IMG/VR virus record: IMGVR_UViG_3300048918_000073
Coordinates: 1 to 44,052 of that record
Source of the DNA: a virus
Direction: 5' to 3' (one strand)
Length of the DNA: 44,052 nucleotides
Under the pieces are notes generated by a model. It was not told the DNA's origin and ran no database searches. It worked only from the letters and a program-made list of their open reading frames with translations. Shown in pieces: positions 721-44,052 of the stretch. Made by a program: the position numbers and the translations under genes. Numbering within the stretch: position 1 is the first letter of the stretch; each line of letters starts with the position of its first letter.

Positions 721-1377
721 TTATCGCGCGGCTCCTTCCTTGAGAGCGGCGAGGGCGGCTTGTTGCGCCGATACTATCGCTGTCACCGGGTTATCCGTGC
801 GCGTTCCGGTTGACGTAACGATTGGCTTGCGCCCTTCGTCATTCCAGAAGGCATCAATTGCTGAATTGAGGACGATTAGCGCCTCTCGCAGCTTCGCTTC
901 ACGCGCAATACCTTCGGCTACTCGCCGAGCCGTTGAGTCTTGTGCAAATTGAGCCTCTTTTAATTCCGCCTCGGCTTTCTCCGCCCGGGCAATGGCGGCG
1001 TCGCGCTCGGAAACCGTTTGACGGAACCAACGGCAGCTGACCGTCATCGACTTTTCTTTGCTGCGATGAGCTGGCCTGATACCCAAGCAAGCGCGCATTG
1101 CATCAAATTCTTCAAAGGTCATGTGAACAATGGCGCCGTCGCTTTCGTAATTCGTGGACGGGTTCAATTGGCCAGCCCAAGCGATTGACGCCCTCAGTTC
1201 CTCCAGTTCAGCGAGGAGGCGGGGAAGCGCGGTGGCCAATTGCTCGAACATGGCTTCCGCCTTCTCGTCATCAATAAGCGGGCCATAGCCATCTGAGCCG
1301 CTATATGGCAGGCCGTCTTTTGCCGCCTCGCACAGCCGCAGCAGTTCGGCCCTTTCATCGTCGGTGAGGTGGGTCAT
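721..1377 (-). CDS. Coiled-coil protein of unknown function between integrase and attP
   Basis: 218 aa. The ATG at 1377 follows the integrase TGA directly, with GGAG in the integrase tail acting as ribosome site, so the two are translationally linked. Residues 120-170 are a charged Ala/Glu/Lys/Arg heptad-like helix (SERDAAIARAEKAEAELKEA). The N-terminal 60 residues are also helical and acidic. No catalytic motif or membrane segment is visible. The position between int and attP is typical for accessory cargo. I do not recognise a family. Confidence 0.75.
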   Translation of the reverse strand: MTHLTDDERAELLRLCEAAKDGLPYSGSDGYGPLIDDEKAEAMFEQLATALPRLLAELEELRASIAWAGQLNPSTNYESDGAIVHMTFEEFDAMRACLGIRPAHRSKEKSMTVSCRWFRQTVSERDAAIARAEKAEAELKEAQFAQDSTARRVAEGIAREAKLREALIVLNSAIDAFWNDEGRKPIVTSTGTRTDNPVTAIVSAQQAALAALKEGAAR

Positions 1378-2391
1378 TCATTTATCTCCTCTAGTTAATG
1401 CCCCAGTGGCCTCTGCCAGGGTCTCCAGATCGGGATGTGTGTATCCCTTGGTCGTAGCCATTGATCGATGGCCTACCAAGTCCATAATGGTGGCTATGGG
1501 TACCTTCGCCTTGTTCAGCCTCGTGATTACCGTATGCCTCATGACGTGGGGAGTTACCCGGTGTGTGATCCCTAAGGCCTTCCTAGCCCTGTGGAGAGCC
1601 GAGTTGATTCTCCGGTAGGTAGGCCACCCAACGGTCGCCAAGGCCACTGCACGGGCCGCTAGGGATTCCTGGAGAGGCACCACTCGCTTGTCTCCGTTCT
1701 TGGTGCGTCCCTCCCAGTTGCCGATAGTCACAGAGCCTTCCTCCAGATTGAAGTCTGAAGGCTTCAGCTTGGTTAGCTCTCCGATACGCATGCCGGTAGT
1801 CAGTAGGAGGTCCATCACCACGGAGATGTCCGGGGAGCCTCTACCCGACAACCACTCCATGATGCGGGCGTCGTCCTCAGGGCTAATCGTGTCCTGCCTC
1901 GGCTCACCCTTCTTGAGGCTCTTCCAAGGGAACACAGGCTTACCCGCGATATGGTCCCGTTCGACTGCCCACTTGAGGGCCGCTGAGACGGTACATAAAT
2001 AACGATGGACTGTGGTGTCCCCCAGGCTCTTGGCCCTGAGGTCCTCGACCAGTTGGTCTAGCTGGGAGGTCCTGATAGACGCCACAGGCTTATCAAGGCC
2101 AAGGAGGTCCATACAGGCGTCGAAACGCTGTAGGCTCTGGGAGACGTCCTTGTGGTTCCTCCAGATGACCCTAGCGTCCTTCTTGAGGTCGCGCACTAGG
2201 TAGCCCCCTTGATGAGCCTGATGGGGCTGTACGAGGCCCTGTGGCGTTCCTAGAGCCAATGATAGCTCGATGGCTTTAGCTTCCTTGAAGTCGTGAGAGT
2301 ATTTCCTGTAGCGAGTTCCGTCGCGGACCACCTCAATCACCCACTGGCCAGTCGGCTCACCCTTGGCGTTCTTTTTGGCATATACGGACAT
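1378..2391 (-). CDS. int: Tyrosine site-specific recombinase (phage integrase)
   Basis: 337 aa from ATG 2391, chosen because GGAGAAAGG lies just upstream; a longer frame from TTG 2409 has no ribosome site. The N-terminal ~60 residues (VYAKKNAKGEPTGQWVIEVV) form an arm-binding type domain. A SAM-like core-binding domain follows. The catalytic domain has the first Arg in TTGMRIGELTKL, the HxxR box in PHVMRHTVITRL, LVGH followed by the Tyr nucleophile in KGYTH. It would join attP (568-612) to a tRNA-Cys gene of the host. Ends are complete and it looks functional. Confidence 0.95.
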   Translation of the reverse strand: MSVYAKKNAKGEPTGQWVIEVVRDGTRYRKYSHDFKEAKAIELSLALGTPQGLVQPHQAHQGGYLVRDLKKDARVIWRNHKDVSQSLQRFDACMDLLGLDKPVASIRTSQLDQLVEDLRAKSLGDTTVHRYLCTVSAALKWAVERDHIAGKPVFPWKSLKKGEPRQDTISPEDDARIMEWLSGRGSPDISVVMDLLLTTGMRIGELTKLKPSDFNLEEGSVTIGNWEGRTKNGDKRVVPLQESLAARAVALATVGWPTYRRINSALHRARKALGITHRVTPHVMRHTVITRLNKAKVPIATIMDLVGHRSMATTKGYTHPDLETLAEATGALTRGDK

Positions 2392-2416
2392 GACGGAACC
2401 TTTCTCCAATCGGTGA

Positions 2417-2434
2417 TTAACAACAGATGGTATT
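2417..2434 (-). promoter_or_regulatory. Degenerate promoter-like motif before integrase
   Basis: The minus strand reads AAATACCATCTGTTGTTA, sharing the ACCATCTG centre with the phage promoter motif but not the CATA end. It lies 26 bp from the integrase start. It could be a decayed site or coincidence. Confidence 0.2.
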
Positions 2435-2437
2435 TAT

Positions 2438-2572
2438 TCAGTGACCAAAAATAGTCAATGCCCAGATACCCCCAAACACCAGGACAAACGCCGCTGTCCA
2501 GATGTTTACCTCAAAGTACCCTAGTGTGTAGACCACAGTACAGACCGCAATGAATATCAGAAAACTAGACAT
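2438..2572 (-). CDS. Small two-helix membrane protein
   Basis: 44 aa, ATG 2572 to TGA 2438, with GGAGAA 8 nt upstream. It encodes MSSFLIFIAVCTVVYTLGYF followed by a second hydrophobic stretch, AAFVLVFGGIWALTIFG, separated by a short polar turn. It fits exactly between the MarR-like gene and integrase. Membrane location is predicted; the role (for example exclusion or a lysis modulator) cannot be told. Confidence 0.65.
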   Translation of the reverse strand: MSSFLIFIAVCTVVYTLGYFEVNIWTAAFVLVFGGIWALTIFGH

Positions 2573-2594
2573 AGAACTATTCTCCACGCAGAGG

Positions 2595-2975
2595 CTATGC
2601 CTCGCCACGCTCAATAATTTGAAGAACCTTATCGATCAACTTGCGACCCTTAGGCGTCAAGAAGTAACGCTGCTGGCGAAGGTCCACAGGGTCTTGCTGG
2701 CTATCTACCAGACCCAGGCCAGGGCCGCCTCCTCTGGTCTTCTTGCCGATCTCGAGGAGCGTCCTGGAAGCAACCGGCTGGATAACACCAATGTCCTTAG
2801 CGTAGGTCCCGGAACCATGGCCTGGCTTCATGGCGACTGCGAGGAGCGCCTGCGCGTAGGACGCCGGGAGCGTCGGTGAGACCTCACGGAGTACCTGGAG
2901 GACAGCAAAGAGACGGGAGAGTCTCCGCGAGCTGTCGTCATCAGGTGCGGCGAAGCGGTCTCGATGGTTGGACAT
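2595..2975 (-). CDS. MarR-like winged-helix protein, possible lysogeny regulator
   Basis: 126 aa from ATG 2975, the first ATG after the upstream stop that has a GGAAA site. The longer frame starting at 3038 overlaps the upstream gene. Residues 25-125 show helix-turn-helix spacing (TYAKDIGVIQPVASRTLLEI) followed by a wing and YFLTPKGRKLIDKVLQII, the usual end of a MarR-type wing and dimer helix. It is the only obvious DNA-binding regulator near the integrase, so it may act on the early or lysogeny promoters. A role as repressor is inference. Confidence 0.65.
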   Translation of the reverse strand: MSNHRDRFAAPDDDSSRRLSRLFAVLQVLREVSPTLPASYAQALLAVAMKPGHGSGTYAKDIGVIQPVASRTLLEIGKKTRGGGPGLGLVDSQQDPVDLRQQRYFLTPKGRKLIDKVLQIIERGEA

Positions 2976-3003
2976 GTGGGAATCATTTCCAGTGGCCCTG
3001 TGG

Positions 3004-3267
3004 TTAGATGGGTTTAACATAAAGGTCAGCCCCGTCAATTAGATCAAGGATGCGCCATGCGTCCTCTTCAGATACAAACATTACGCCTTTATCAGACAGT
3101 TGCCAAGTGTACTTCTCCGCCAAGTGGTATGCTTTCTTGGAAACTATTTGGAAAGCAGCTAGGCCTCCAGCGTCCCACAAGTACAAATCGGGAACAGACT
3201 CGCAGTGAAGCTGGGTACAGTCGGCGGTTTCCTGAGCGTCCTCAGGAGAGTTATGGTCCAATAGCAT
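3004..3267 (-). CDS. Conserved-looking small early protein
   Basis: 87 aa from ATG 3267, with AAGGAA 5 nt upstream. Mixed alpha/beta composition, acidic, two Cys near the N-terminus (DCTQLHC). No known motif. It lies in the minus-strand early cluster between a 57-aa gene and the MarR-like gene. The leader (3268-3411) folds into a long hairpin closed by CCTATGA/TCATAGG. Confidence 0.6.
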   Translation of the reverse strand: MLLDHNSPEDAQETADCTQLHCESVPDLYLWDAGGLAAFQIVSKKAYHLAEKYTWQLSDKGVMFVSEEDAWRILDLIDGADLYVKPI

Positions 3268-3411
3268 TGTATTTCCTTGAAGGCTTAGGGACGGTATCGG
3301 TCGGCCCGTGTCATGTTTGGTTAGGGAGGTTTCAGGCAGTTTCCCTATGAGCGCAAGGCGATATCTCGAAGGCTTCTCCTATTCATAGGTGCAGTGGTAA
3401 AAATACACCAA

Positions 3412-3585
3412 CTAAGCAAACAGAGCCTCAAAGCGTCGATACTTCGCGACAGCCGCGCGAGCGTCTCCCTGAGCAGCCGCAGCTGACACAAAGCCTCTAT
3501 CAGAGCCACACAAGGCGGTGCCACAATCAGTGAGCGACCAGTACCAAAGGCCGCGCGAGTTGGTGAGGTGAATGGAGATTTTCAT
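3412..3585 (-). CDS. Small early protein, DUF1508-like look
   Basis: 57 aa, ATG 3585 to TAG 3412. It starts 4 nt after the stop of the 102-aa gene upstream, with TAAGG as ribosome site, and fills an otherwise empty gap. The pattern MKISIHLTNSRGLWYWSLTD, then GFVSAAAAQGDARAAVAKYR, resembles the beta-strand plus helix unit of DUF1508/YegP proteins. That resemblance is by eye only. Confidence 0.55.
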   Translation of the reverse strand: MKISIHLTNSRGLWYWSLTDCGTALCGSDRGFVSAAAAQGDARAAVAKYRRFEALFA

Positions 3586-3589
3586 CGGG

Positions 3590-3898
3590 TTAGGCCTTAC
3601 GGTTCAAGAGGGTTTCGATGCGGTCCCACATCGCATCGGCCAGGGTGGAGGCGATGGCGATTTCGACGGTTACGTCCGAGGCGATGGCCGCATGATTATG
3701 GACGGGCGTCTCCTCCAGGTCGCTCACGAATTGCTTCGCTGCGGCAATGTCATCAAGCACGAAGTCCCAATAGATGCGGAACGACCTGATGTCGTCCAAA
3801 GCATCCCGATAGGTCACAAACCAGCGGAGGGCGGTTGCTGTGCGAGGCATCCATTGGAGAGCGTCAGCCTTGAAAGTTACGCTTTGCTTGTCAGTCAT
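3590..3898 (-). CDS. Small early protein of unknown function
   Basis: 102 aa from ATG 3898 with TAGGAG 6 nt upstream. Predicted mostly helical (DALDDIRSFRIYWDFVLDDI), no membrane segment or Cys. Its leader carries the third copy of the hairpin/TGTGG element at 3918-3961. Early promoter-proximal position suggests a host-interaction protein, but nothing in the sequence identifies the target. Confidence 0.6.
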   Translation of the reverse strand: MTDKQSVTFKADALQWMPRTATALRWFVTYRDALDDIRSFRIYWDFVLDDIAAAKQFVSDLEETPVHNHAAIASDVTVEIAIASTLADAMWDRIETLLNRKA

Positions 3899-3917
3899 GG
3901 TATGCTCCTAGTGTTAG

Positions 3918-3961
3918 GTAGACGTAATGATCCACAGCTAGGCGCTACTGAGAACGCCTAG
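3918..3961 (-). promoter_or_regulatory. Early leader element, copy 3 (hairpin plus TGTGG block)
   Basis: On the minus strand a CTAGGCG/CGCCTAG hairpin (3955-3961 with 3938-3944) is followed by TGTGGATCATTACGT, then the ribosome site of the 102-aa gene. Copies 1 and 2 have a different stem sequence but keep the pairing and the downstream block. Confidence 0.6.
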
Positions 3962-3971
3962 GGTTAGAGCA

Positions 3972-4199
3972 TCAGGCCTCAATATCCGAGATAGCCTCAC
4001 GCACGCACGTCAGGTTATACTTCGCACCATCGGGTGTCTTCTGGCCATCTAGGTCCCGCATCATGAGACGGGCGGCGGCTCCTACTGTCTTAGTCTTGCT
4101 GCGACACTCCAAGGCGAGGCGATAGAGACCTTCGTCGTTATTGATCCAGAGGGAGACGTTCCAAGCGTTCCAGCTTCTGTGGCCCTGATAGGTTGTCAT
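3972..4199 (-). CDS. Small conserved phage protein (WNAWNV motif)
   Basis: 75 aa from ATG 4199, preceded by GGAG 9 nt upstream; the same leader layout is seen before the 86-aa gene. It contains GHRSWNAWNVSLWINNDEG, and then a KTPDGAKYN segment, a combination I associate with a small phage protein family of unknown function. Soluble, mixed fold. Leader copy 2 of the hairpin element precedes it. Confidence 0.65.
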   Translation of the reverse strand: MTTYQGHRSWNAWNVSLWINNDEGLYRLALECRSKTKTVGAAARLMMRDLDGQKTPDGAKYNLTCVREAISDIEA

Positions 4200-4275
4200 A
4201 GTGTTTAACTCCATTGGGTATCTATCGGCACGTTATGAGCCACACATAGACCGCCTGTTGGAGGCCTATGGATAG
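4199..4275 (-). promoter_or_regulatory. Early leader element, copy 2
   Basis: Matches 4563-4639 over about 75 bp; bases 4227-4257 are identical to 4591-4621. On the minus strand it forms CATAGGCCTCC/GGCGGTCTATG (4245-4270), then TGTGGCTCATAACGTGCC, then GGAG and the start codon. The loop differs from copy 1 while the stem is kept. Confidence 0.7.
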
Positions 4276-4302
4276 ACCATCAGGCTATCGTAGTATGAAT
4301 CC

Positions 4303-4563
4303 TTACAGTTCGAGATGATCCACAGCTATTTGTGCGAGTTCATTAGGGTTGTCCCCAACAAGCAGGAATCCCTCATCGTCAGCGCATGGATCAAATAGAA
4401 CAAAGGCACCTGGGTACTTCTTGACACGACTACGCAGTCCAGCCAGCGCCTCTTCGCATATCTCTGGTATTCCATTATCCATCTTAATGGTCCCGTTTAG
4501 GAAATCATTCCGCGCCACTATCTGGTAAGCCAGGGCCTCAATTAGTGCTTTAGGGTCTGACAT
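4303..4563 (-). CDS. Small early protein of unknown function
   Basis: 86 aa from ATG 4563; GGAG sits 9 nt upstream in a leader nearly the same as that of the next gene. The ATG at 4578 lies before this ribosome site and is less likely. The sequence is helical at the N-terminus (ALIEALAYQIVARNDFLNG) and acidic at the C-terminus. No recognised domain. Confidence 0.6.
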   Translation of the reverse strand: MSDPKALIEALAYQIVARNDFLNGTIKMDNGIPEICEEALAGLRSRVKKYPGAFVLFDPCADDEGFLLVGDNPNELAQIAVDHLEL

Positions 4564-4639
4564 GGTATCTAACTCCATATGGTCTGCATTGGCACGTTAT
4601 GAGCCACACATAGACCGCCTGCGGAGGCCTATGGATTAG
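4563..4639 (-). promoter_or_regulatory. Early leader element, copy 1
   Basis: Same element as 4199-4275: stem 4609-4619 with 4623-4633 (3-nt loop), conserved TGTGG block, then the ribosome site of the 86-aa gene. It may be an RNase III site, a translational control element or a processed leader, as seen between T7 early genes. Confidence 0.7.
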
Positions 4640-4669
4640 ATCATGCATGCATCGGGCGAGAGGTTAGCC

Positions 4670-4894
4670 CTAGCAGGCTATTAGTTCGTACTCATCCCAT
4701 AGTACAGCCAGCAGTGTAGCGTAGTCATCGTACAGTTCCGCATTATCATCGAGTTCTTCCCGGAAGTCTGTCGCCGCGTCGCCCTGGAGAAATACCTCTT
4801 GGGCTGTCTTTATGTTACAGAATGAGTACGCAAGACCACCTCCAAACGACGTAACACGCCACGCTGGCAGGTCGTGAATGATAGCTGACTTCAT
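4670..4894 (-). CDS. First gene of the leftward early operon, unknown
   Basis: 74 aa from ATG 4894 with GATGGGG upstream. Acidic C-terminus (DFREELDDNAELYDDYATLL). It lies closest to the divergent promoter region, the position held in T7 by anti-host proteins such as gp0.3, which is also small and acidic. There is no sequence evidence that it shares that function. Confidence 0.6.
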   Translation of the reverse strand: MKSAIIHDLPAWRVTSFGGGLAYSFCNIKTAQEVFLQGDAATDFREELDDNAELYDDYATLLAVLWDEYELIAC

Positions 4895-4929
4895 TGTGTG
4901 GCCCCATCTCGTTCGCCTCTTGTGATTAC

Positions 4930-4958
4930 AATGTAAGCCCGATGCATTCCTTATGCAA
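4930..4958 (-). promoter_or_regulatory. Candidate host sigma70 promoter for the leftward early operon
   Basis: The minus strand has TTGCAT (4958-4953), a 17-nt spacer and TACATT (4935-4930). This is a weak match at -35 and moderate at -10, correctly placed 36 bp from the first early start codon. Confidence 0.35.
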
Positions 4959-4967
4959 GCGTTATTT

Positions 4968-4985
4968 TATGTCATTTGGGAAATA
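4968..4985 (-). promoter_or_regulatory. Candidate phage RNA polymerase promoter P-early
   Basis: The minus strand reads TATTTCCCAAATGACATA followed by AAATAAC. The 3' half (CCANNTGRCATA-ARATAAC) matches the replication-gene sites well, the 5' half poorly. It would let the phage polymerase re-transcribe early genes and integrase. Confidence 0.4.
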
Positions 4986-4992
4986 AATGTGA

Positions 4993-5021
4993 TTGACAAC
5001 CAAATGATGATGCATTAGGTT
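4993..5021 (+). promoter_or_regulatory. Candidate host sigma70 promoter for the rightward operon
   Basis: Consensus TTGACA at 4993-4998, a 17-nt spacer, and TAGGTT at 5016-5021, 32 bp upstream of the ATG at 5053. This is the best sigma70-type promoter seen in the control region. Confidence 0.55.
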
Positions 5022-5052
5022 AGCTGTAGGTTGAACAAAAGGACATGCCGCC

Positions 5053-5295
5053 ATGACAAGCCAGACCAGAGCCTCACTCAAAGACATCGGCAATCTGATT
5101 TTCGATGCGCTCGCCCTTATGCGCGACTGTCAGATAGGCGAGGAGAATGATAGCCTTGAGGTTATCGACGTGAGACGCCGCGCCCCTACGCGCCCTGACG
5201 ATTGCACTGTGGAAGTCATCCTGTCTAACGGGCAACGGTTTAGCATTGCGGTAGGTGATAGCCCTGACGTGGCCATTGACGTGACCCTGACGTGA
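5053..5295 (+). CDS. Small protein opening the rightward block, unknown
   Basis: 80 aa, ATG 5053 with AAAAGGA upstream. Helical N-terminus (LKDIGNLIFDALALMRD) and a C-terminal beta-rich half (CTVEVILSNGQRFSIAVGD). Transcribed away from all early genes from its own sigma70-type promoter. In a temperate phage this divergent position often holds a regulator, but there is no clear helix-turn-helix here. Confidence 0.6.
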   Translation: MTSQTRASLKDIGNLIFDALALMRDCQIGEENDSLEVIDVRRRAPTRPDDCTVEVILSNGQRFSIAVGDSPDVAIDVTLT

Positions 5296-5380: not shown

Positions 5381-5992
5381 TAACCAAAGCTTTATATGTT
5401 GGATTACGAATATGTTATCGCCTCGGTCTGGACCATTAGCCTAACAGGCCCTGGCGTTTCTCAAGCGGCTTGTCGCCATGTCCTAGCATGTAACATGCTG
5501 TTACTCTTCATGTTCTTCTAGGCGTTGCGGCTGACGGGCTGACGTTATGGAGGTAACCTAGGGGGCAAGGGGGGTCCCTCTGGCCGCTACAAATCGGAAA
5601 ATCGTCCTGGAACCGACTTCAAAAAAGATGGTTAAACCCCGTCGTTGTTGTTCGGAAATCGCGGTCAGTGAAGGGACTCCGGGGGGGCGCGTCTCGGGCT
5701 CCTCCCGCCTCATTTTGAACACGTTTCGCCTACTCATGTGGGTATTTTTCCCACCTAGGGTCCCCTCCAGAGCGAGGAGAGGCTCCTCAGGAGCTAGTAG
5801 GTCCATTTGGGGACTATAGGGCACTATTTGTATTACACAACAATGACTTAGCCCATGGTGACTTCGGTGAGTGGTAACTTCCAAAGATAGGGCTCCCTCA
5901 TGCACCCTCGATGCGCCTCTGAGTCCCTATAGCCCCTACCTTCGGTACCCTTGATGGTCGAACAGCGTCGGAGGGGCGCTCCCCCGTTTAAG

Positions 5993-6006
5993 GAATCTAA
6001 CCCGAT
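5993..6006. repeat. 14-bp direct repeat, left copy (right copy 6763-6776)
   Basis: GAATCTAACCCGAT is exact at 5993-6006 and 6763-6776, bracketing the collar-fibre gene. Related G-rich tracts (GGGGGCAAGGGGGG at 5561 and GGGGGGTAAGGGGGG at 6788) lie outside it on both sides. Confidence 0.7.
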
Positions 6007-6738
6007 ATGGCACTCGAATCCGCCACCTACATCCAGTCCCTGGCGTCGAGCAATCCGCCTGCGGGTGACCCTGCTGGACAATCTGCTGATCACATCCGGC
6101 TCATTAAGTCAGTCCTCCTGGCCACCTTCCCGAATCTCAATGCTCCAGTCACCTCGACACCCCTCCAGTTAAACAGCCCGGTTCCTCTCGGGACTATCGT
6201 CATGTGGAACATCGCCTCATCGGGGGCGATTCCTACTGGATGGGCTCTGTGTAACGGTGGAGTGTATCCTAGGGCTGACGGCCTTGGAAACATTGGGACT
6301 CCGAACCTCGTGGATAGGTTCATTGTGGGTTCAGGGTACACCTACGGAAATGGAACTTCAGGGGGCTCAGCTACCCACAGTCATAACATCACGGTAGGCG
6401 GAACGAATCTCAATCAGGCGCATATTCCGAATCTGGCTATTGTTGTTTCTGACCCAGGACATAACCACGGTGTTAATGATCCCGGTCACTCCCACTCGAT
6501 CACCCCTGGAGGTACCTTCCTGACGGCTGGTGGCGGTCAGAGTACCTCGGCTAACATTGGGTCCTCCACGTCTGCTAACGTAACTGGTATTTACTTAAGT
6601 CCTGCAGCTACAGGCATCTCGGCGTACACATCAGCCACTGGTGGCGGTGTTGGACAGCCTCATACCCATGGTGCCTATGCTGACGTGCAGAGTAACCTCC
6701 CTCCGTATGTCGCCCTGGCATACATCATGAAACTCTGA
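6007..6738 (+). CDS. Tail fibre protein with tail-collar type C-terminus
   Basis: 243 aa from ATG 6007; AAGGA lies 12 nt upstream. Residues 60-105 hold the collar motif: PLGTIVMWN, then PTGWALCNGGVYPRADG and TPNLVDRFIVGSG. A Gly/Ser/Thr-rich, His-rich stretch follows (HSHNITVGG, DPGHNHGVNDPGHSHS), and the end is QSNLPPYVALAYIMKL, the usual end of short receptor-binding fibre tips. Probably the receptor-binding or fibre-tip protein at the distal tail. It stands alone between two non-coding stretches and direct repeats, suggesting an exchangeable cassette. Confidence 0.75.
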   Translation: MALESATYIQSLASSNPPAGDPAGQSADHIRLIKSVLLATFPNLNAPVTSTPLQLNSPVPLGTIVMWNIASSGAIPTGWALCNGGVYPRADGLGNIGTPNLVDRFIVGSGYTYGNGTSGGSATHSHNITVGGTNLNQAHIPNLAIVVSDPGHNHGVNDPGHSHSITPGGTFLTAGGGQSTSANIGSSTSANVTGIYLSPAATGISAYTSATGGGVGQPHTHGAYADVQSNLPPYVALAYIMKL

Positions 6739-6949
6739 TGGTTAGCCTTAGGTTTGACACTCGAATCTAACCCGATGAGTGGGTCTTGGGGGGTAAGGGG
6801 GGAACCTAAAGGTTCTCCTTAGGAATAACCTAATGACCTAGAGAGTACTTAGGGATATAATCATTATTGTTATAAATCTCTAAGTCCTTCTCTAAGGATA
6901 ACTCTAAGAGTATCCCTAAGATACCTAAAGTTATATCACGATAGATGTT
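6739..6949. promoter_or_regulatory. Hairpin-rich leader with a sigma70-like promoter
   Basis: ATGACC (6833-6838), 17 nt, and consensus TATAAT (6856-6861) make a fair promoter. Three hairpins overlap it: CCTAAaGG/CCTTAGG (6804-6823), an imperfect long stem at 6849-6887, and GGATAaCTCT/AGAGTATCC (6893-6912). CTAAG/CTTAG recurs about eight times. Little coding potential. Confidence 0.4.
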
Positions 6950-8668
6950 GTGGATAGCACGAAGTGCCTCTCCTCCATTTGTTACACCCACATCTCCATT
7001 GACACCCGAGGTCTTCCTTTGCCCCTCGCTCCTTTCCGTGACCTCGGCGCACTTGGGGTTGCCACTGACACCGACCCCTATAATAACAAATTCCAAGAGT
7101 TCACCTTCGCGTCTAACGTCCGCTTCGAGGATAAGCGCATCCAGCGTGGTCCTGTGTTCTCAACCTCAGGAACCTTGGTGGTAAACACCAGTCCTCGCTT
7201 CGTGGTTTCCTACAAGCAGCTGACAGGTAGCTCCCAGTTCCACATTGCTAACCGAGACGGCACCATCACCAATTGGGCCTCCACTGGGATTGGCGCAACC
7301 TCCATTGAGACGACCATCAGTCCTGTGGGCTGGACCCCCTCGAATTACGATCAGCCTTACACCGGCTGTATCATTAATGACGTTGTGTACCTGAACCGCC
7401 CTGACAGAGTCCCGTGGTACAAGACGAAAAACGGCTCAGCCTTCGCTCCGCTACCTAACTGGGACCCTACTTGGCGAGCAGGTGCCTTCCGAGAGGTCGC
7501 TGGCGTGCTCGTGGCTCTGAATATCACGAATGGTGGTGTAGCGTATCCTACGGCTGTGACAACGTCTGACTACATGACCTTCGGGACTGTCCCTGGGACG
7601 TGGGTTGCCGCGACGACCAACTCTGCGACCTTCCAGGTAATCTCCGATCTGTCTGAGCCTCTCATCGATGGGATCAACCTGAGAGACCGCCTGATTCTCT
7701 ACACTGAGAATGAGTGCTGGTCGATGGAGCCTCGCTACGACAACCTGATGTTCAACTACCGGCGTCTCTTCGACAACTCTGGGGTAATCAACCAGAACTG
7801 CGTAGGTGTCTACAATAATACACACTTTGTGTTTGGCACCCAAGACATCTGGGAGCATGACGGTTACCAGCGGAAGTCACTGGCGGCTGGCCGGGTGAGG
7901 GACTTCATCTTCCAGAACATGGATAAGACTCAGAGTCTCCAGTTCTTCACGATGCATAATCCTCGCCTGTCCGAGATGATGTTCTGCTACGTGTCGAGAG
8001 ACCAGTATTGCGCCTTCCCTGCCTCCTCTTCGATGCTTGGATGTAACAGGGCGGCTGTCTATAACTATCGGGCAGACACATGGTACTTCTATGACCTTCC
8101 TTACGTCACTGGGGCTGGCCTGGGTATTCCATTTACCGGAGCAACCTACACTGACCTGTTAGGCGTCTCCTATAGCTCTCTGGCTGGCTCCTACAGTTCA
8201 TTCGGTGATAACACCAAGCTGACTCCCCTGTTCGTCTCTCCGGGCTCCTCAGGCTCCTATGGGACGCTCCAGCCAGCTGTCCGCTCGTTTGACCGCTCTG
8301 GGGCCACCACCATCAACGGTGTGTTGGATACCGTGGCGACTGCTCCAGTAATCATTGAGAACTCGGGTCTCGATCTAGATGACCTCCACACGGAACTGCG
8401 GGGCTATAAGATCGTCAAGGCGATCTATCCTGAGGGACGCTTCGATCCAGGAGCAGGTCCCCTGACATTCACCTTTGCGTGCAGAGACTTCCCAAATTCC
8501 CCGTCTGTGGCCCTATCTCCCTCACAGACATTTGACGGTCTCCAGAATTACAAATTGGATTTTAGGTCGGCAGGCAGATACCTCGACATGACCATCACGT
8601 ATTCTGACACCAAGAACTTTAGTCTGACTGGGCTTGACTTTGATTACGCCCAGACAGGACATCGATAA
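6950..8668 (+). CDS. Tail tube/nozzle-type structural protein (gp12 position)
   Basis: 572 aa frame from GTG 6950. The start has no clear ribosome site, so the N-terminus is uncertain; the conserved-looking part begins near PFRDLGALGVATDTDP. It is a beta-rich protein with repeated aromatic sheets (NVRFEDKRIQRGPVF, IYTENECWSMEP-like segments, WEHDGYQRKSLAAGRVRDFI), as in large tail-nozzle or tail-stabilising proteins of podoviruses. The gene order (this, small gene, GNAT-like gene, then three ejection proteins) parallels T7 genes 12-13-14-15-16, which supports a distal-tail role. Confidence 0.65.
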   Translation: MDSTKCLSSICYTHISIDTRGLPLPLAPFRDLGALGVATDTDPYNNKFQEFTFASNVRFEDKRIQRGPVFSTSGTLVVNTSPRFVVSYKQLTGSSQFHIANRDGTITNWASTGIGATSIETTISPVGWTPSNYDQPYTGCIINDVVYLNRPDRVPWYKTKNGSAFAPLPNWDPTWRAGAFREVAGVLVALNITNGGVAYPTAVTTSDYMTFGTVPGTWVAATTNSATFQVISDLSEPLIDGINLRDRLILYTENECWSMEPRYDNLMFNYRRLFDNSGVINQNCVGVYNNTHFVFGTQDIWEHDGYQRKSLAAGRVRDFIFQNMDKTQSLQFFTMHNPRLSEMMFCYVSRDQYCAFPASSSMLGCNRAAVYNYRADTWYFYDLPYVTGAGLGIPFTGATYTDLLGVSYSSLAGSYSSFGDNTKLTPLFVSPGSSGSYGTLQPAVRSFDRSGATTINGVLDTVATAPVIIENSGLDLDDLHTELRGYKIVKAIYPEGRFDPGAGPLTFTFACRDFPNSPSVALSPSQTFDGLQNYKLDFRSAGRYLDMTITYSDTKNFSLTGLDFDYAQTGHR

Positions 8669-8676
8669 GGCATGCT

Positions 8677-8850
8677 GTGACCGTTCAAGCCGTCCAACCA
8701 TATGTCCGAGTTCCTCCCCCGCCTCCTACTAGGCCGGAATCGACTCGAGACTACATTGATCAGCAGCTGAGGAATATCGAGAAGACCCTGCGAGACCTCC
8801 AAGCAGCCGTCATCCAGATTCAAAAGGCTACTGCCCTCCCGATTACCTGA
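8677..8850 (+). CDS. Small proline-rich coiled-coil virion-cluster protein
   Basis: 57 aa, GTG 8677 to TGA 8850, with ATAAGG 6 nt upstream. Its stop overlaps the next ATG by one base (TGATG), a firm sign of a real gene. It encodes a Pro-rich N-terminus (VRVPPPPPTRPES) and one amphipathic helix (IDQQLRNIEKTLRDLQAAVI). Probably a small virion or assembly helper. No family recognised. Confidence 0.75.
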   Translation: MTVQAVQPYVRVPPPPPTRPESTRDYIDQQLRNIEKTLRDLQAAVIQIQKATALPIT

Positions 8851-9200
8851 TGAGCTACCTCCAGGTAATCAACTATCCCCCGGTACCGCTGACTGACGAC
8901 TTAGATTTCGACGTGAGTTGGAATTACATCCAGGCAAAACCGGGGGAACTCCTCCCGTTTGTCCATGTAGAGGTCTTCTACTGGCGAGCAAGTGTCTTGA
9001 GGAAACTCATGGCGCTTTGGCCTAGTGTACGCGCTGGGCTACCAAACATTATCTTCTGCTCAGGCACCGAGTCTGACGTCAAGTTTCAGAAATTCATCGC
9101 CCATTTCGGGTGGCAACCCTTACAATTAGCCCATTGTTCTGACGGTAAAGACCGAATGATCTATGTGCATTACGCACAGGCTGTGCCTGGCAACCTTTAG
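8850..9200 (+). CDS. gp13-position protein, GNAT-like
   Basis: 116 aa from ATG 8850. The C-terminal half (SVRAGLPNIIFCSG, then KFQKFIAHFGWQPL) resembles the end of GNAT acyltransferase-like folds, as found in internal virion protein gp13 of T7-like phages. Location between the nozzle protein and the first ejection protein agrees. Enzyme activity is doubtful: no clear acetyl-CoA loop is visible. Confidence 0.5.
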   Translation: MSYLQVINYPPVPLTDDLDFDVSWNYIQAKPGELLPFVHVEVFYWRASVLRKLMALWPSVRAGLPNIIFCSGTESDVKFQKFIAHFGWQPLQLAHCSDGKDRMIYVHYAQAVPGNL

Positions 9201-25848: not shown

Positions 25849-27525
25849 GTGCGTATTAATTTAGCGATTGCCACGCTGTTGTCCAGCGTGCTACTTAGTG
25901 CTGCCCAGACGCCTACCGTGTTCAAGAACCTTTCTGTCACTGGCACCCTAGCTCTCCCGAGTGCATCGGTCACGGCCTCGATGCTGGCGAGCGGCGCGGC
26001 GAAGGCCAATCTCTCGACCATGCTGCCGGGGCTATCAGCCTCTGTTGAGGGCACCGGAACCGCCGGACTCGATGGTGGTCGCTGGTTCATCTATGACAAT
26101 AGCTTCCTGAACAATGGCCAGCCCTCCCTGCGAGTTGACAGGAGGGACACTAGCGGCACTGGCGGCACGCATAGGGTTAATAACTCTCTATGGGCCACCA
26201 GCTTCACGAATCCCATCAACGCCAGTTCACAGTGGACCCTTCTAGGTGAGGCGTTCAACACGTCCAACACCAGCGGTACAACCTACGTGGCGTCAAATGG
26301 GACCGTGCATAGAAATATTCCCACGCAGACATCAGCGACTGCTTCCGCCAGCGGCAACGGGACGACGGCTACCGTAACTTTCACCCCTGGGGCAAACACT
26401 CTCGCCACTATCCCTGTTGGACATACCGTCCTGATCGAAGGCATGGCTCCAAGCGGCTACAATGGCCGGTTCAAAGTTACGGCGTCGTCGTCCGGTTCTG
26501 TCTCCTTCGCCAGTTCCACGACTGGGGCGCAGACTGTCGCTGGGACGATCACGGACATTACGACAGTGGCGTCGTGGGGCATGAACGGAAACTGCATAGA
26601 GTCAACCGGCGAGACAGACCCTGCGTGGGGATGTCTTGGCGCGGAGTTTGATGTCACCCTTGAGGGCAGCATTCCGACGACAGACGCCTATAAAAATCGC
26701 GTAGGCGTGCAAATCCAATTCAACGGACCAGCTAGCACTAGTGGATCGCACGCCGGTCGCGCCCTCTTGCTCGGCACCATGCCAGGCCTTACGTGGGACA
26801 CTGGCATGGAGTTTTCCGGCAGTTATGGCACGGGCATAGACTTCACGCCTGGTACATTCACAGGTAACGCCATCACGCTACCCGCGAGCGGAGTCATTGG
26901 TGCGGTGGATGATATTACGCTGGCGGTAGCTTCCGGTGGTGTTCAACACTTCAAGAACGGAACTGTTGATATATGGCAGATCAACGGTAATTCGTTGAGC
27001 GGAGACTTTGTACCTGTCGCGGATATTGCACGCAACATAGGCGAGCCTACGCAGCGTGTGAAAAGCTTATGGGCGCAGAGCCTTGGATCATCCGCTGTTC
27101 CAGTTACAAACGCTTATATGTCCAGCGTGACAACCGGCTCGATTGGCCCAACGTCTGGAAGCTTAACGGTTGCGGCGGGCAGCGCGGGAAATCTCAATCT
27201 TAGTGGCGGGTCTTCTGGCATTTCTCTCCAGGTTAACGGAACGTCTTATTGGAAGGTGGACGGGTCCACATTCGCCCTTCGCCCGCTTGGGGATGGCTCG
27301 GCCAATATCGGTGCTGCTGCTACAGAGGTTGGCACGATTTTTACGCAAAACATGCAGTTGAAAGCATATACCGTGGCGACGCTCCCGTCTTGCGCCTCCG
27401 TTTCCGCTGGAATGATCGCCTATGTCACGGACGCATCCAGCCCCACCTACAACGCCACTTTGACTGGCGGGTCATCCACCAAGACGCTCGCCATGTGCAA
27501 CGGGACCAACTGGACCGCGCACTAA
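25849..27525 (+). CDS. Tail fibre protein with signal-like N-terminus
   Basis: 558 aa from GTG 25849. Residues 1-19 (MRINLAIATLLSSVLLSAA) look like a Sec signal. Then TVFKNLSVTGTLALPSASV, typical of fibre shaft starts, and long Ser/Thr/Gly beta repeats. Three similar units with GSxNIGxxxxxV (VADIARNIGEPTQRVKSLWA; LGDGSANIGAAATEVGTI) near the end are usual in fibre C-termini, as is the cysteine-bearing tip (LPSCASVSAGMIAYVTDASS). Likely trimeric host-recognition fibre. Confidence 0.75.
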   Translation: MRINLAIATLLSSVLLSAAQTPTVFKNLSVTGTLALPSASVTASMLASGAAKANLSTMLPGLSASVEGTGTAGLDGGRWFIYDNSFLNNGQPSLRVDRRDTSGTGGTHRVNNSLWATSFTNPINASSQWTLLGEAFNTSNTSGTTYVASNGTVHRNIPTQTSATASASGNGTTATVTFTPGANTLATIPVGHTVLIEGMAPSGYNGRFKVTASSSGSVSFASSTTGAQTVAGTITDITTVASWGMNGNCIESTGETDPAWGCLGAEFDVTLEGSIPTTDAYKNRVGVQIQFNGPASTSGSHAGRALLLGTMPGLTWDTGMEFSGSYGTGIDFTPGTFTGNAITLPASGVIGAVDDITLAVASGGVQHFKNGTVDIWQINGNSLSGDFVPVADIARNIGEPTQRVKSLWAQSLGSSAVPVTNAYMSSVTTGSIGPTSGSLTVAAGSAGNLNLSGGSSGISLQVNGTSYWKVDGSTFALRPLGDGSANIGAAATEVGTIFTQNMQLKAYTVATLPSCASVSAGMIAYVTDASSPTYNATLTGGSSTKTLAMCNGTNWTAH

Positions 27526-33578: not shown

Positions 33579-33596
33579 TATGTCGATTGGTTTGCA
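33579..33596 (-). promoter_or_regulatory. Candidate phage RNA polymerase promoter
   Basis: Minus strand TGCAAACCAATCGACATA, followed by AAGGA and the start codon of the 73-aa gene. Close match to TGYAARCCANNWGRCATA. Confidence 0.6.
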
Positions 33597-33852: not shown

Positions 33853-33870
33853 TATGCCAGATGGCTTACA
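33853..33870 (-). promoter_or_regulatory. Candidate phage RNA polymerase promoter
   Basis: Minus strand TGTAAGCCATCTGGCATA, a full match to the consensus, 20 bp before the 75-aa gene. Lies at the extreme 3' end of the DNA polymerase frame. Confidence 0.65.
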
Positions 33871-36106: not shown

Positions 36107-36124
36107 TATGTCAAATGGTTTGTA
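36107..36124 (-). promoter_or_regulatory. Candidate phage RNA polymerase promoter
   Basis: Minus strand TACAAACCATTTGACATA then GGATACC; one mismatch to the consensus. Lies between the primase-helicase stop and the HNH gene, and so upstream of DNA polymerase. Confidence 0.6.
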
Positions 36125-39545: not shown

Positions 39546-39563
39546 TATGCCAGATGGTTTGCT
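39546..39563 (-). promoter_or_regulatory. Candidate phage RNA polymerase promoter
   Basis: Minus strand AGCAAACCATCTGGCATA, followed by AGATAAC, 25 bp before the SSB start. Differs from the consensus only at the first base. Confidence 0.65.
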
Positions 39564-39757: not shown

Positions 39758-42149
39758 ATTCAGCCTCTAGGATGTCGTTAATGTTGTAATCGCCCTTGTG
39801 AGGCAGCGGAGGCATCTTATGCCAATTGGTTTGCAGTTGTCCATGACTTTCTCGCCAAATGTCAAACAAGACGTCATTGTCGCGGTAGAGGGACCAGAAG
39901 GTCTCCCTAATAATCTCCCTGAATCTCCCCGCCTTGTTTGGATGGCACCCGAAGGAGTCATGAACCAGCGCGACGTCACGGATTCCTTCGTCCTTAGCCG
40001 CCAGGACCACCATCATCAGATGACAGGCGTCATAAGCGTGAACGAAACACGGGGCGATGCTGGAAGCCGCCTTCCGCTTGTTAATCCCTGGTAGTTCCCG
40101 CCACATGGACGGGGTGACTGTCTTCTTGACCCCCTTGTCGTGGAGCGTCAGGGATACCCGCACCGTGGTGTGGTTCGTGTAGTTGAGGACCACTGGGAAC
40201 CCTAAGGGCGTGTGCCAGACAACCGGCTTTCCTTCATGCGCCATGGTCCTTGCGATGTCCTGTAGGAACCCCATGGCCTCTGCTGGCTTATACACTGTCT
40301 GCTCGATGGCCCCATAGATGGTCTTGGCGAGGTACCGGGCAGCGAAGTATCCATTGTCAGGGCCGAAGGGATGCTCGTCGTACTTCCCCCGAAGCACCTG
40401 ATATTCGAGGGGCTTCATGGTGTCCTCAAGGTGCTGCTCCGACATGCCGTAAACCTTGGAGGAGTACGAGAAGGTCATGACGTTCCTCTTCACGAGGCTT
40501 CGGTTCACGCCGTAAGCAAGCGACCTCTGTGCAACATCGCGCGTTCGGCCTGCTGCCTCATTGTCCACTCCGGGGTCTCGAATATCTCTTTGAATAACTT
40601 CTTTAGCCAGATCGGCCACCACTTGGTAGACATCTTGCGGTTCTCCTAAGTTCGTGAGGTTGACAAGTTTCGCTGTATTCTCGTCTCGAGTCATCGCGCC
40701 AAGATGCTGTAGGCCACTACAAGAGCCATCAAAAGAAACAGGTAGTCGACAAGCATCGCTCGGATTGATGTGGTGGTCCACGAGAGCCATACACGCTGCA
40801 AGAAACATGAAGGGGCTGTCGGCTTCGGTCCACCAAATGTCGTCCTTGGGGCTGGTGGCGACACTGATGATCCGCTCCCAGTTTTCTTCAACCCACTTGA
40901 CGCGGTCATCGAAGGGCTTCTTTGAAACCTTCCCGAAGTCTCCACAGTTAGCGAGGTGGACCTGGAGCCAATACAGGCCGGACTCATCGAGAGGCTCTCC
41001 ATTGGAAAATTCGAATAATGACCTGACATAATCCTGCCTCTGGAAGTTGAAGAACGGTAGACCATACACTCGACCGCGATAGTCGAGGTTCATCGACGTG
41101 TAGAACGTGTCGTTACCTATCCACTCAACTGTCGACATGTCCTGAGCAAACACGAGGCGCTCCCCTAGGTAGCTCCGATTGAGTTCCTTGGTGGTGTTCA
41201 CATCCTTCATACGGACAATCTGTTCAGCCTTTGTCATGTTCTCCCATGGCTTCTCCATAGCAGGCATGGGGATATTGTCTCTAGGAGGCATACCGGGAAC
41301 GTCCAGACCTGTCTGGTAGGCCCACCGCACCACGTCCAGGATAGACGTATTGATGCGGTATGGAACGCTCTGGGCGGCATTAACGGCTTCAAGCACCTGA
41401 GCCATGCGGCCAGTCCTGATAGCCTCCTTGATGGTCCTCTGTGTCGTCTTGTCGTAGCTCCTAACAAGCTGCGACCAAAAGCCGTGGACCTGTATGCTGG
41501 AGGAGTCCCACTCAGCGGGGACCTCTTTGTGCGGGAGGTACACTGGATGCCTATTAATGAGTTGCTCCACAATAGCGTTGGAGACCTCCAGGGCCTCTTC
41601 AGTGATCGCCAGGTTGTGGTGGTCATCAATAGTGAACACATCACAGCTAAGCATGGCTTCCATTAGCCACCTGCCAGCCCTAGCCGACTCCTTGGAGGAC
41701 CAGGCCTTCCACGGAAATTTAGCCTTCTGAGCTAAGGACCTCAGGGCCTTCCGTCTGAAACCAATCTGCTTCCAGTTACGCTTGATGTCCTCCATGATCT
41801 TCTTGGTACGCTTGGCGTCCCACTGCTCCATCCCATGATTGAAGCACTCGAGCTCCAGCGTAAGGCCCATGTTGTGGACTGCCCGAGCAAATGTGAGCCC
41901 CTGCGCGACCGCAGAGATACCCACAGAGAGGCCCACCACGGCTATCAATTCATCTGATAGCTCCGAGACCTCAGAGCGATGCTCACGGGGCTTCAGGCTG
42001 GCTCGGTGGGTCCTCACGGCCTCTGCGGTGGCTGTCAGGTACGTCTCAGCAATCGCCAAGGCACCCGGCGTATCTCCCCAACCCATCGAGTCCGCTGTGC
42101 GCTTGGTGGTCTTGGCGAACCTATCTACAGTTAGCTGGGCGCTGTTCAT
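39744..42149 (-). CDS. Single-subunit T7-type RNA polymerase
   Basis: 801 aa from ATG 42149 with GGGAGA upstream. Catalytic residues line up with T7: D474 in SFDGSCSGLQH (T7 D537), R550/K554/Y562 in RSLVKRNVMTFSYSS (R627, K631, Y639), H704 in FVHAYDACHLM (H784), D731 in VHDSFG (D812). The C-terminus YAFA retains the FA foot. Transcribes phage genes from its own short promoters. About 80 residues shorter than T7, mainly at the N-terminus, so promoter recognition may differ. Confidence 0.97.
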   Translation of the reverse strand: MNSAQLTVDRFAKTTKRTADSMGWGDTPGALAIAETYLTATAEAVRTHRASLKPREHRSEVSELSDELIAVVGLSVGISAVAQGLTFARAVHNMGLTLELECFNHGMEQWDAKRTKKIMEDIKRNWKQIGFRRKALRSLAQKAKFPWKAWSSKESARAGRWLMEAMLSCDVFTIDDHHNLAITEEALEVSNAIVEQLINRHPVYLPHKEVPAEWDSSSIQVHGFWSQLVRSYDKTTQRTIKEAIRTGRMAQVLEAVNAAQSVPYRINTSILDVVRWAYQTGLDVPGMPPRDNIPMPAMEKPWENMTKAEQIVRMKDVNTTKELNRSYLGERLVFAQDMSTVEWIGNDTFYTSMNLDYRGRVYGLPFFNFQRQDYVRSLFEFSNGEPLDESGLYWLQVHLANCGDFGKVSKKPFDDRVKWVEENWERIISVATSPKDDIWWTEADSPFMFLAACMALVDHHINPSDACRLPVSFDGSCSGLQHLGAMTRDENTAKLVNLTNLGEPQDVYQVVADLAKEVIQRDIRDPGVDNEAAGRTRDVAQRSLAYGVNRSLVKRNVMTFSYSSKVYGMSEQHLEDTMKPLEYQVLRGKYDEHPFGPDNGYFAARYLAKTIYGAIEQTVYKPAEAMGFLQDIARTMAHEGKPVVWHTPLGFPVVLNYTNHTTVRVSLTLHDKGVKKTVTPSMWRELPGINKRKAASSIAPCFVHAYDACHLMMVVLAAKDEGIRDVALVHDSFGCHPNKAGRFREIIRETFWSLYRDNDVLFDIWRESHGQLQTNWHKMPPLPHKGDYNINDILEAEYAFA
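39818..39835 (-). promoter_or_regulatory. Candidate phage promoter inside the RNA polymerase gene
   Basis: Minus strand TGCAAACCAATTGGCATA, then AGATG. Fits the consensus though it also encodes polymerase residues LQTNWHK. It would drive the 62-aa, SSB and endonuclease genes. Confidence 0.5.
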
Positions 42150-42208: not shown

Positions 42209-42247
42209 GGCTGGAGCTAACCTATTGTTATCAGTTAGTTTCCAGCC
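42209..42247 (-). promoter_or_regulatory. Hairpin in the RNA polymerase leader
   Basis: Stem GGCTGG/CCAGCC (42209-42214 with 42242-42247) continued by CTAAC/GTTAG (42217-42221 with 42234-42238). No U-run, so an RNase III processing or leader structure is more likely than a terminator. Confidence 0.55.
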
Positions 42248-42260
42248 TGTCAGGTCATGC

Positions 42261-42640: not shown

Positions 42641-42658
42641 TATGCCAGATGGTTTTCA
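42641..42658 (-). promoter_or_regulatory. Candidate phage RNA polymerase promoter
   Basis: Minus strand TGAAAACCATCTGGCATA followed by TATAACC, 42 bp before the L7/L12-like gene. Upstream of RNA polymerase, so it could give positive feedback. Confidence 0.65.
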
Positions 42659-43860: not shown

Positions 43861-44052
43861 TTAGGCCTTATGTGTGCAGAACATCTGAATGAATTTTACC
43901 TCCTGAGCAGCCCTCGCAGCATCCCCCGCAGCAGCCCTCGCAGCAGCCCACGCAGCATCCCACGCAGTAGCCCTCGCAGCAGCCCACGCAGCATCCCCCG
44001 CAGCATCCCACGCAGCAGCCCTAAGCTCCTCATCTCCTGTCTTGAGGTACTG
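43861..44052 (-). CDS. C-terminal part of the Imm5-like protein that starts at 396
   Basis: The minus-strand frame encodes QYLKTGDEEL, then Ala-rich repeats, then EVKFIQMFCTHKA and stop TAA at 43863-43861. The 5' side runs off the window and is completed by bases 1-396 once the terminal overlap is collapsed. The stop lies 6 nt before the ATG of the next gene (43854), so it is cotranscribed with the ThyX/RNA-polymerase cluster. At bases 43922 and 43926 this copy reads Gly-Asp where the window start reads Arg-Ala. Confidence 0.8.
   Translation of the reverse strand, partial: QYLKTGDEELRAAAWDAAGDAAWAAARATAWDAAWAAARAAAGDAARAAQEVKFIQMFCTHKA
43916..44023. repeat. 12-bp coding tandem repeat, about 9 units (also at 1-106)
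   Basis: Units follow CNCGCAGCAKCC with substitutions mostly at the second base and at the K position. On the minus strand each unit encodes four residues of the A-[AT]-[AW]-[WRGD] type, so the array is the Ala-rich helical tail of the Imm5-like protein. Units differ from each other, which argues against a recent slippage burst. The window start shows a slightly different unit order at its first 9 bases. Confidence 0.85.

What the first reader, a model, noticed from the sequence alone, without database searches (positions are those of the whole stretch)
3918..4639. Three early genes share a covarying hairpin plus conserved block in their leaders
Copies at 4563-4639 and 4199-4275 share 31 identical bases. 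The third (3918-3961) has a different stem sequence that still pairs, then TGTGGATCATTACGT versus TGTGGCTCATAACGT. Conserved pairing with changed bases indicates an RNA element: an RNase III site, a translational switch or a protein-binding site shared by early genes.
Basis: seen in the sequence. Interest (0 to 1): 0.7.

Follow-up and report, generated by a model that had tools for sequence, protein, structure and literature searches.

The report
Repeated hairpin before three phage genes
A temperate T7-like virus of bacteria carries the same roughly 50-letter RNA hairpin in front of three neighbouring small genes, and it most likely marks places where the long early message is cut or handled gene by gene, much as in phage T7.

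Summary
Three leaders on the minus strand (A 4594-4644, B 4230-4280, C 3922-3972) carry one ~51-nt element: ATGNTCTA, an inner hairpin (P2), then TGTGGMTCATWACGT, 23-30 nt before the start codon. A and B share 31 identical bases. C has another stem sequence that still pairs, with two double changes in the structural alignment. Folded alone, all five known copies give one shape: outer stem, internal loop, inner stem. The sense strand folds better than the antisense in 5 of 5. One relative in IMG/VR has two more copies. I found none in the other sequences I searched. Homology between the two phages resumes and stops at element edges, and the relative lacks the gene between A and B, with A's left flank and B's right flank. 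The element is probably an RNA processing hairpin that works like T7's early RNase III sites. Shape, size and distance to the start codon match T7 sites, whose cut positions I recalled. Cleavage is untested. Against: the covariation rests on one divergence, and in longer transcripts the outer stem is predicted in only 2 of 5. Shine-Dalgarno masking is not conserved. The element is moderately interesting, as a sequence-unrelated member of a known kind.

The parts
4594..4644 (-). Element A: outer stem P1 4637-4644 with 4599-4606, inner stem P2 4626-4633 with 4609-4616, conserved block 4594-4608; leader of gene 4303-4563
   Evidence: 68.4 bits
4230..4280 (-). Element B, leader of gene 3972-4199
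   Evidence: 75.4 bits
3922..3972 (-). Element C, with another P2 sequence that still pairs; its first base overlaps the stop codon of gene 3972-4199; leader of gene 3590-3898
   Evidence: 71.6 bits
4303..4563 (-). Gene behind element A (ORF listed from 4578, likely start ATG at 4563 behind GGAG); no PHROG or Pfam match, no relative in viral contigs, absent from the related contig between the corresponding flanks
3972..4199 (-). Gene behind element B, phrog_871 / DUF7249, function unknown
3590..3898 (-). Gene behind element C; 51% identical homolog in the related contig only
4670..4894 (-). First gene of the run (phrog_17546), without an element in its leader

Best explanation
A repeated sense-strand RNA hairpin lies in the leaders of the second, third and fourth genes of the leftward early run of a temperate Autographiviridae-type phage. 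It has an outer stem of 7-8 pairs, a small internal loop and an inner stem of 7-9 pairs. It most likely works like T7's early RNase III sites: the host RNase III would cut the polycistronic early message at or near the internal loop, so that each gene gets its own mRNA with a short, defined 5' leader and the upstream message a protective 3' hairpin. Shown here: the repeat, its shape by folding, its strand, its place, its conservation in one relative, and its coincidence with mosaic joints. Inferred: transcription as one message, early timing, and cleavage. A by-product, also inferred: because each gene carries the same leader, the copies offer homology through which early genes can be gained, lost or exchanged.
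For: All five copies fold alone into the same outer stem, internal loop, inner stem at -16.2 to -20.5 kcal/mol, and the unconstrained consensus fold agrees on the short and the long alignment. Two P2 pairs are changed on both sides and kept. Sense folds better than antisense in 5 of 5. C and R2 differ only in the apical loop, B and R1 at 2 of 52 positions, while the phrog_871 coding sequence matches at 181 of 228. T7's five sites, folded at recalled cut positions, give hairpins of like size (-18.0 to -23.0 kcal/mol over 50-62 nt), four with an outer stem, an asymmetric loop and an inner stem, R1.3 with a single mismatch in place of the loop; the cut lies 26-34 nt before the ATG in four of five. 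Here the element ends 23-30 nt before the ATG. PMC6121014 (passages) describes T7 R1.1 as a 60-nt RNA with an asymmetric internal loop from the early region. No promoter or terminator match at the elements.
Against: No cleavage data. In ~150-nt transcripts P1 is predicted in C (~0.8) and R1 (~0.75) but at ~0 in A, B and R2, where other long-range pairs win. Stability alone is not special: other leaders of this phage reach z -3.2 to -3.8. P1 is nearly invariant, so it has no covariation of its own; the count of pairs changed on both sides is no higher than in shuffles (240 of 500). The same paper says the Sinorhizobium enzyme wants longer duplexes than the E. coli one. No sequence likeness to T7 sites was seen by eye.
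Confidence: 0.45

Rival explanations
1. A protein-binding control element: a host or phage protein recognises the hairpin with its internal loop and the TGTGGMTCATWACGT block and sets the translation or stability of the three genes together.
For: The single-stranded ACGT end of the block and the linker are conserved beyond what pairing asks; three genes of unlike families share it.
Against: No binding partner is known or was sought; RNase III sites can also carry conserved sequence.
Confidence: 0.2
2. A recombination joint: the repeats are kept mainly as homology at gene boundaries, like the mobile stem-loop cassettes recalled for T4-type phages, with little role in RNA.
For: The homology block 3921-4280 between the two phages ends at the edges of elements C and B; R1 has A's left flank and B's right flank; the gene between A and B is missing in the relative.
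Against: A joint needs like sequence, not a kept fold: C pairs through other bases, and the sense strand folds better than the antisense in 5 of 5. One phage pair only.
Confidence: 0.15
3. A passive stabiliser: the hairpin protects the 3' end of the upstream message from exonucleases, or the 5' end of the downstream one, without being cut.
For: Hairpins sit just behind stop codons and before leaders.
Against: Does not explain the conserved block and linker.
Confidence: 0.1
4. A Shine-Dalgarno-masking switch: the conserved 5' block pairs with the ribosome-binding site.
For: Single-sequence folds of A and C pair the 5' block with the GGAG region and R2 closes a three-way junction; GGAG is only 0.17-0.35 unpaired in the four copies that have it.
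Against: Partners and register differ, R1 does not form it, R2 has no GGAG, and the consensus fold of the full leaders leaves the Shine-Dalgarno unpaired.
Confidence: 0.07

Closest known systems
T7 early-region RNase III sites (R0.3, R0.5, R1, R1.1, R1.3)
   Same: Repeated hairpins in leaders of early genes of an Autographiviridae phage, two stems with an interruption between, like size and energy, about 25-35 nt before the start codon in four of five (cut positions recalled).
   Different: Unrelated sequence by eye; slightly weaker; cutting unknown here; found only before genes 2-4 of the run.
Extended start-associated sequences (ESAS/SAS) of Cluster K mycobacteriophages (PMC3203893, passages read)
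   Same: An imperfect inverted repeat with variable spacer followed by a conserved short block in the leaders of several non-structural genes; function unknown; consensus differs between subclusters.
   Different: SAS is a 13-bp motif at the translation start; it has no match within 2 mismatches in the window. Here the block is 23-30 nt from the start codon.
PeSL mobile regulatory cassettes of T4-type phages (recalled; paper not held)
   Same: Stem-loop in intergenic regions where gene content changes between relatives.
   Different: As recalled, PeSL pairs an early promoter with the stem-loop; no promoter match is seen at the elements here (host unknown).

Membership tests
T7-type early RNase III sites | Intergenic leader of early genes in a T7-like phage, a few tens of nt before the start codon | tested here: met
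   Element ends 23-30 nt before the ATG; T7 26-34 nt from recalled cut to ATG in four of five. Early timing is inferred from gene order.
T7-type early RNase III sites | Irregular two-stem hairpin with internal loop | tested here: inconclusive
   Met in 5 of 5 when folded alone and in the consensus; in ~150-nt transcripts P1 is predicted in 2 of 5.
T7-type early RNase III sites | Cut by RNase III | not testable with these tools
   Needs RNA and enzyme, or transcript ends.
SAS/ESAS of Cluster K mycobacteriophages | 13-bp GGGATAGGAGCCC at translation starts | tested here: not met
   0 matches with up to 2 mismatches in the window.
SAS/ESAS of Cluster K mycobacteriophages | Imperfect inverted repeat just upstream of the block | tested here: met
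   P2 directly before TGTGGMTCATWACGT in all five copies, though with 7-9 paired bases rather than 17.
PeSL cassettes of T4-type phages | Early promoter together with the stem-loop (recalled) | tested here: inconclusive
   No sigma-70 match at the elements, but the host and its promoters are unknown.
PeSL cassettes of T4-type phages | Flanks genes that are exchanged between relatives (recalled) | tested here: met
   Homology ends at element edges and a gene is absent between A-like and B-like flanks; one pair of phages.
Any Rfam family | Score at or above the gathering cut-off | tested here: not met
   0 matches in the window; at E up to 5 on 3560-5060 only one sR3 hit at 5000-5035, outside the elements and far below its cut-off.

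The most novel reading that the evidence does not exclude
The element is a plug-in leader: one RNA module, recognised through its internal loop and 3' block by a specific partner, that gives every early gene its own processed and similarly translated message. Its repetition also lets foreign host-takeover genes enter the early operon by recombination inside the module without loss of control.
Probability: 0.18. Interest if true: 0.6.

Novelty: new member of a known kind. Interest (0 to 1): 0.36.

Why it matters
Early genes of T7-like phages are the fast-changing host-takeover genes. A shared RNA leader that both shapes their messages and marks the joints at which they are exchanged would link gene expression with gene turnover. 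It would also give a handle for finding host-takeover genes in temperate Autographiviridae phages.

Tried and rejected
More copies: the 16-base pattern in viral contigs gave the relative (2 copies) and L008, which lies in a coding frame (HNH-like by recall) without a hairpin. In genome contigs 13 stretches were found; none has the hairpin. I read them as chance.

My last viral scan was mis-specified: the 3' stem was written GNCNTA instead of GNCTA, so it could not match the window itself. Its 77 stretches (with L184 added, 78 sources) hold no credible model match (best E 3). That scan is wasted, and viral relatives with a changed 3' block were therefore not sought.

The covariance model on 80 loci (79 phrog_871 relatives from elsewhere and L009, which is the related contig) found the element only in L009; these 80 are the best of 206. 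On 385 genomes of the class of G009 the model gave two hits (28.5 and 25.8 bits, per-genome E 0.001 and 0.006) inside long coding frames; by recall these look like topoisomerase I. I count them as chance. The 385 genomes are a sample, scored with stricter filters, and G009 was chosen only because it is an alphaproteobacterial MAG; the host is unknown.

Host by tRNA: the tRNA-Cys-like 3' half at about 565-615 (read by eye; ARAGORN finds no gene) has no match in those 385 genomes with up to 3 mismatches.

Relatives by protein: RNA polymerase, gene 4303-4578 and the gene 25849-27525 found none in viral contigs. Promoter, terminator and presumed phage-promoter readings of the element: no support. 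The partial copy of the block at 4310-4324 inside a gene end is within chance (2.3 matches with up to 3 mismatches expected).

Papers: RNase III/T7 searches gave little on early sites; a search for conserved stem-loops in early phage genes gave 0 papers. LUZ100 (PMC10134795) has no mention of RNase III, hairpin or stem-loop (term search of the main text).

Full report
What is there. The window is an IMG/VR virus record of 44,052 bases. It has a T7-type RNA polymerase (about 32% identity to many phages), DNA polymerase, primase/helicase, ribonucleotide reductase, thymidylate synthase and an integrase. Bases 1-135 and 43918-44052 are 99% identical, so the record may be circular, although this stretch is a 12-base tandem repeat. 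The DNA polymerase is closest to Roseobacter phages such as CRP-113 (42.7%). There the order is small genes, MarR-type regulator, integrase, RNA polymerase. On the minus strand here it is small genes from 4894 down, a regulator (2595-3038) and an integrase (1378-2409), with the RNA polymerase at 42149 beyond the ends if they join. The three genes of the finding are thus early by position, not by measurement.

The element. On the minus strand, A (4594-4644), B (4230-4280) and C (3922-3972) read ATGNTCTA, a linker, an inner stem-loop, then TGTGGMTCATWACGT. The ATG follows after 30, 30 and 23 nt. A and B share 31 identical bases. C scores 55 and 51 against A and B in local alignment, where none of 4965 random pairs of window segments passed 44. 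The block is perfect three times in the window and nowhere else in it.

The relative. A pattern scan of viral contigs found one related contig, IMGVR_UViG_3300048907_000084 (loci L004, L007, L009, L106; G001), with two copies: R1 before its phrog_871 gene and R2 upstream of the homolog of gene 3590-3898. Large blocks of the two genomes around the early genes are 96-97% identical (1317-3585 and 5980-9000), but between them the early region is a mosaic. Elements B and R1 match at 50 of 52 positions, C and R2 at 47 of 51 with all differences in the apical loop. The phrog_871 coding sequence matches at 181 of 228, and the leader stretch between element C/R2 and the start codon at 16 of 28 gapped positions.

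Structure. Folded alone, all five copies give outer stem, internal loop, inner stem at -16.2 to -20.5 kcal/mol, and the consensus fold agrees. Over 80 cells 91.3% pair; slid versions reach at most 40.0%. Two pairs change on both sides, one by G-U/G-C and one is lost. By the count of such pairs the result is not above shuffles (240 of 500); by cells and covariation score it is (4 of 500 reach it). The five sequences hold only two stem types, so this is one event, inherited. The antisense strand folds less well in 5 of 5. Results against: in transcripts of about 150 nt P1 is predicted in C (about 0.8) and R1 (about 0.75) but near 0 in A, B and R2. Other leaders of this phage are as stable. P1 has no covariation of its own.

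Search with the model. Model R1 finds 3 copies in the window (68.4-75.4 bits; next best 11.1) and 2 in the relative (74.8 and 69.2; next best 12.7). Among the 80 loci brought by the phrog_871 search it finds only the relative's copies. In the eight other records, searched whole, the best match has E 0.255. In 385 genomes it finds two hits inside coding frames, taken as chance. Elements B and C give only short chance-level pieces in 50,697 phage records. Rfam has no match.

How it may work. T7 has repeated hairpins in its early leaders, cut by RNase III (recalled; R1.1 is described in PMC6121014, passages). I folded the five T7 sites at cut positions recalled from memory. Four form an outer stem, an asymmetric loop and an inner stem, and R1.3 has a single mismatch in place of the loop; the cut lies 26-34 nt before the ATG in four of five, 119 nt for R1.1. 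The element here has that shape, size and place. [quoted passage not shown] The same paper says that an alphaproteobacterial RNase III wants longer duplexes than the E. coli enzyme. I commit to RNase III-type processing at 0.45. A protein-binding control element is the main rival at 0.2. Shine-Dalgarno masking is seen in single folds but is not conserved.

Cassette joints. The homology block 3921-4280 between the two phages starts and ends at the edges of C and B. R1 has A's left flank and B's right flank (A/R1 40 of 67 and B/R1 34 of 67 gapped positions upstream, with the near 25 bases clearly A-like; B/R1 27 of 30 and A/R1 21 of 30 downstream), and gene 4303-4563 lies between A and B only in the window phage. 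The simplest reading is recombination inside the element that removed or brought in a gene. This is one phage pair.

Known kinds. T7 early RNase III sites are the nearest in form and place. SAS/ESAS of Cluster K mycobacteriophages (PMC3203893, passages) are a similar unexplained pairing of inverted repeat and conserved block, but their 13-bp motif is absent here. PeSL cassettes of T4-type phages are recalled only; the DOI I tried is not held. In what it works like I file the element as a new member of a known kind; membership among RNase III sites is untested at the deciding feature, cleavage.

Noticed in passing
33579-33592, 33853-33866, 36107-36120, 39546-39559, 39818-39831, 42641-42654 (minus strand): Repeated motif AACCANNTGGCATA, 11 matches with up to 2 mismatches against 2.1 expected, mostly in or near gaps before middle genes on the minus strand; likely the promoters of the phage's own RNA polymerase. 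None lies at the three elements.
   Followed up: partly
42210-42260 (minus strand): A hairpin of about 14 pairs (AGGCTGGA...TCCAGCCT with CTAAC...GTTAG inside) in the leader of the RNA polymerase gene (z -3.3).
   Followed up: no
624-702: Inverted repeat GGGTTAGCCTGTGG / CCACAGGCTAACCC with GGAGGTGATTACCTCC between the arms, next to a tRNA-Cys-like 3' half at about 565-615 (read by eye): probably part of the attachment site used by the integrase.
   Followed up: partly
1-135 and 43918-44052: Ends of the record are 99% identical over 135 bases, within a coding 12-base tandem repeat rich in GCTGCG.
   Followed up: no
L007:5552-5614 (minus strand): In the relative a 20-codon ORF follows element R2, and the homolog of gene 3590-3898 starts further down.
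   Followed up: no
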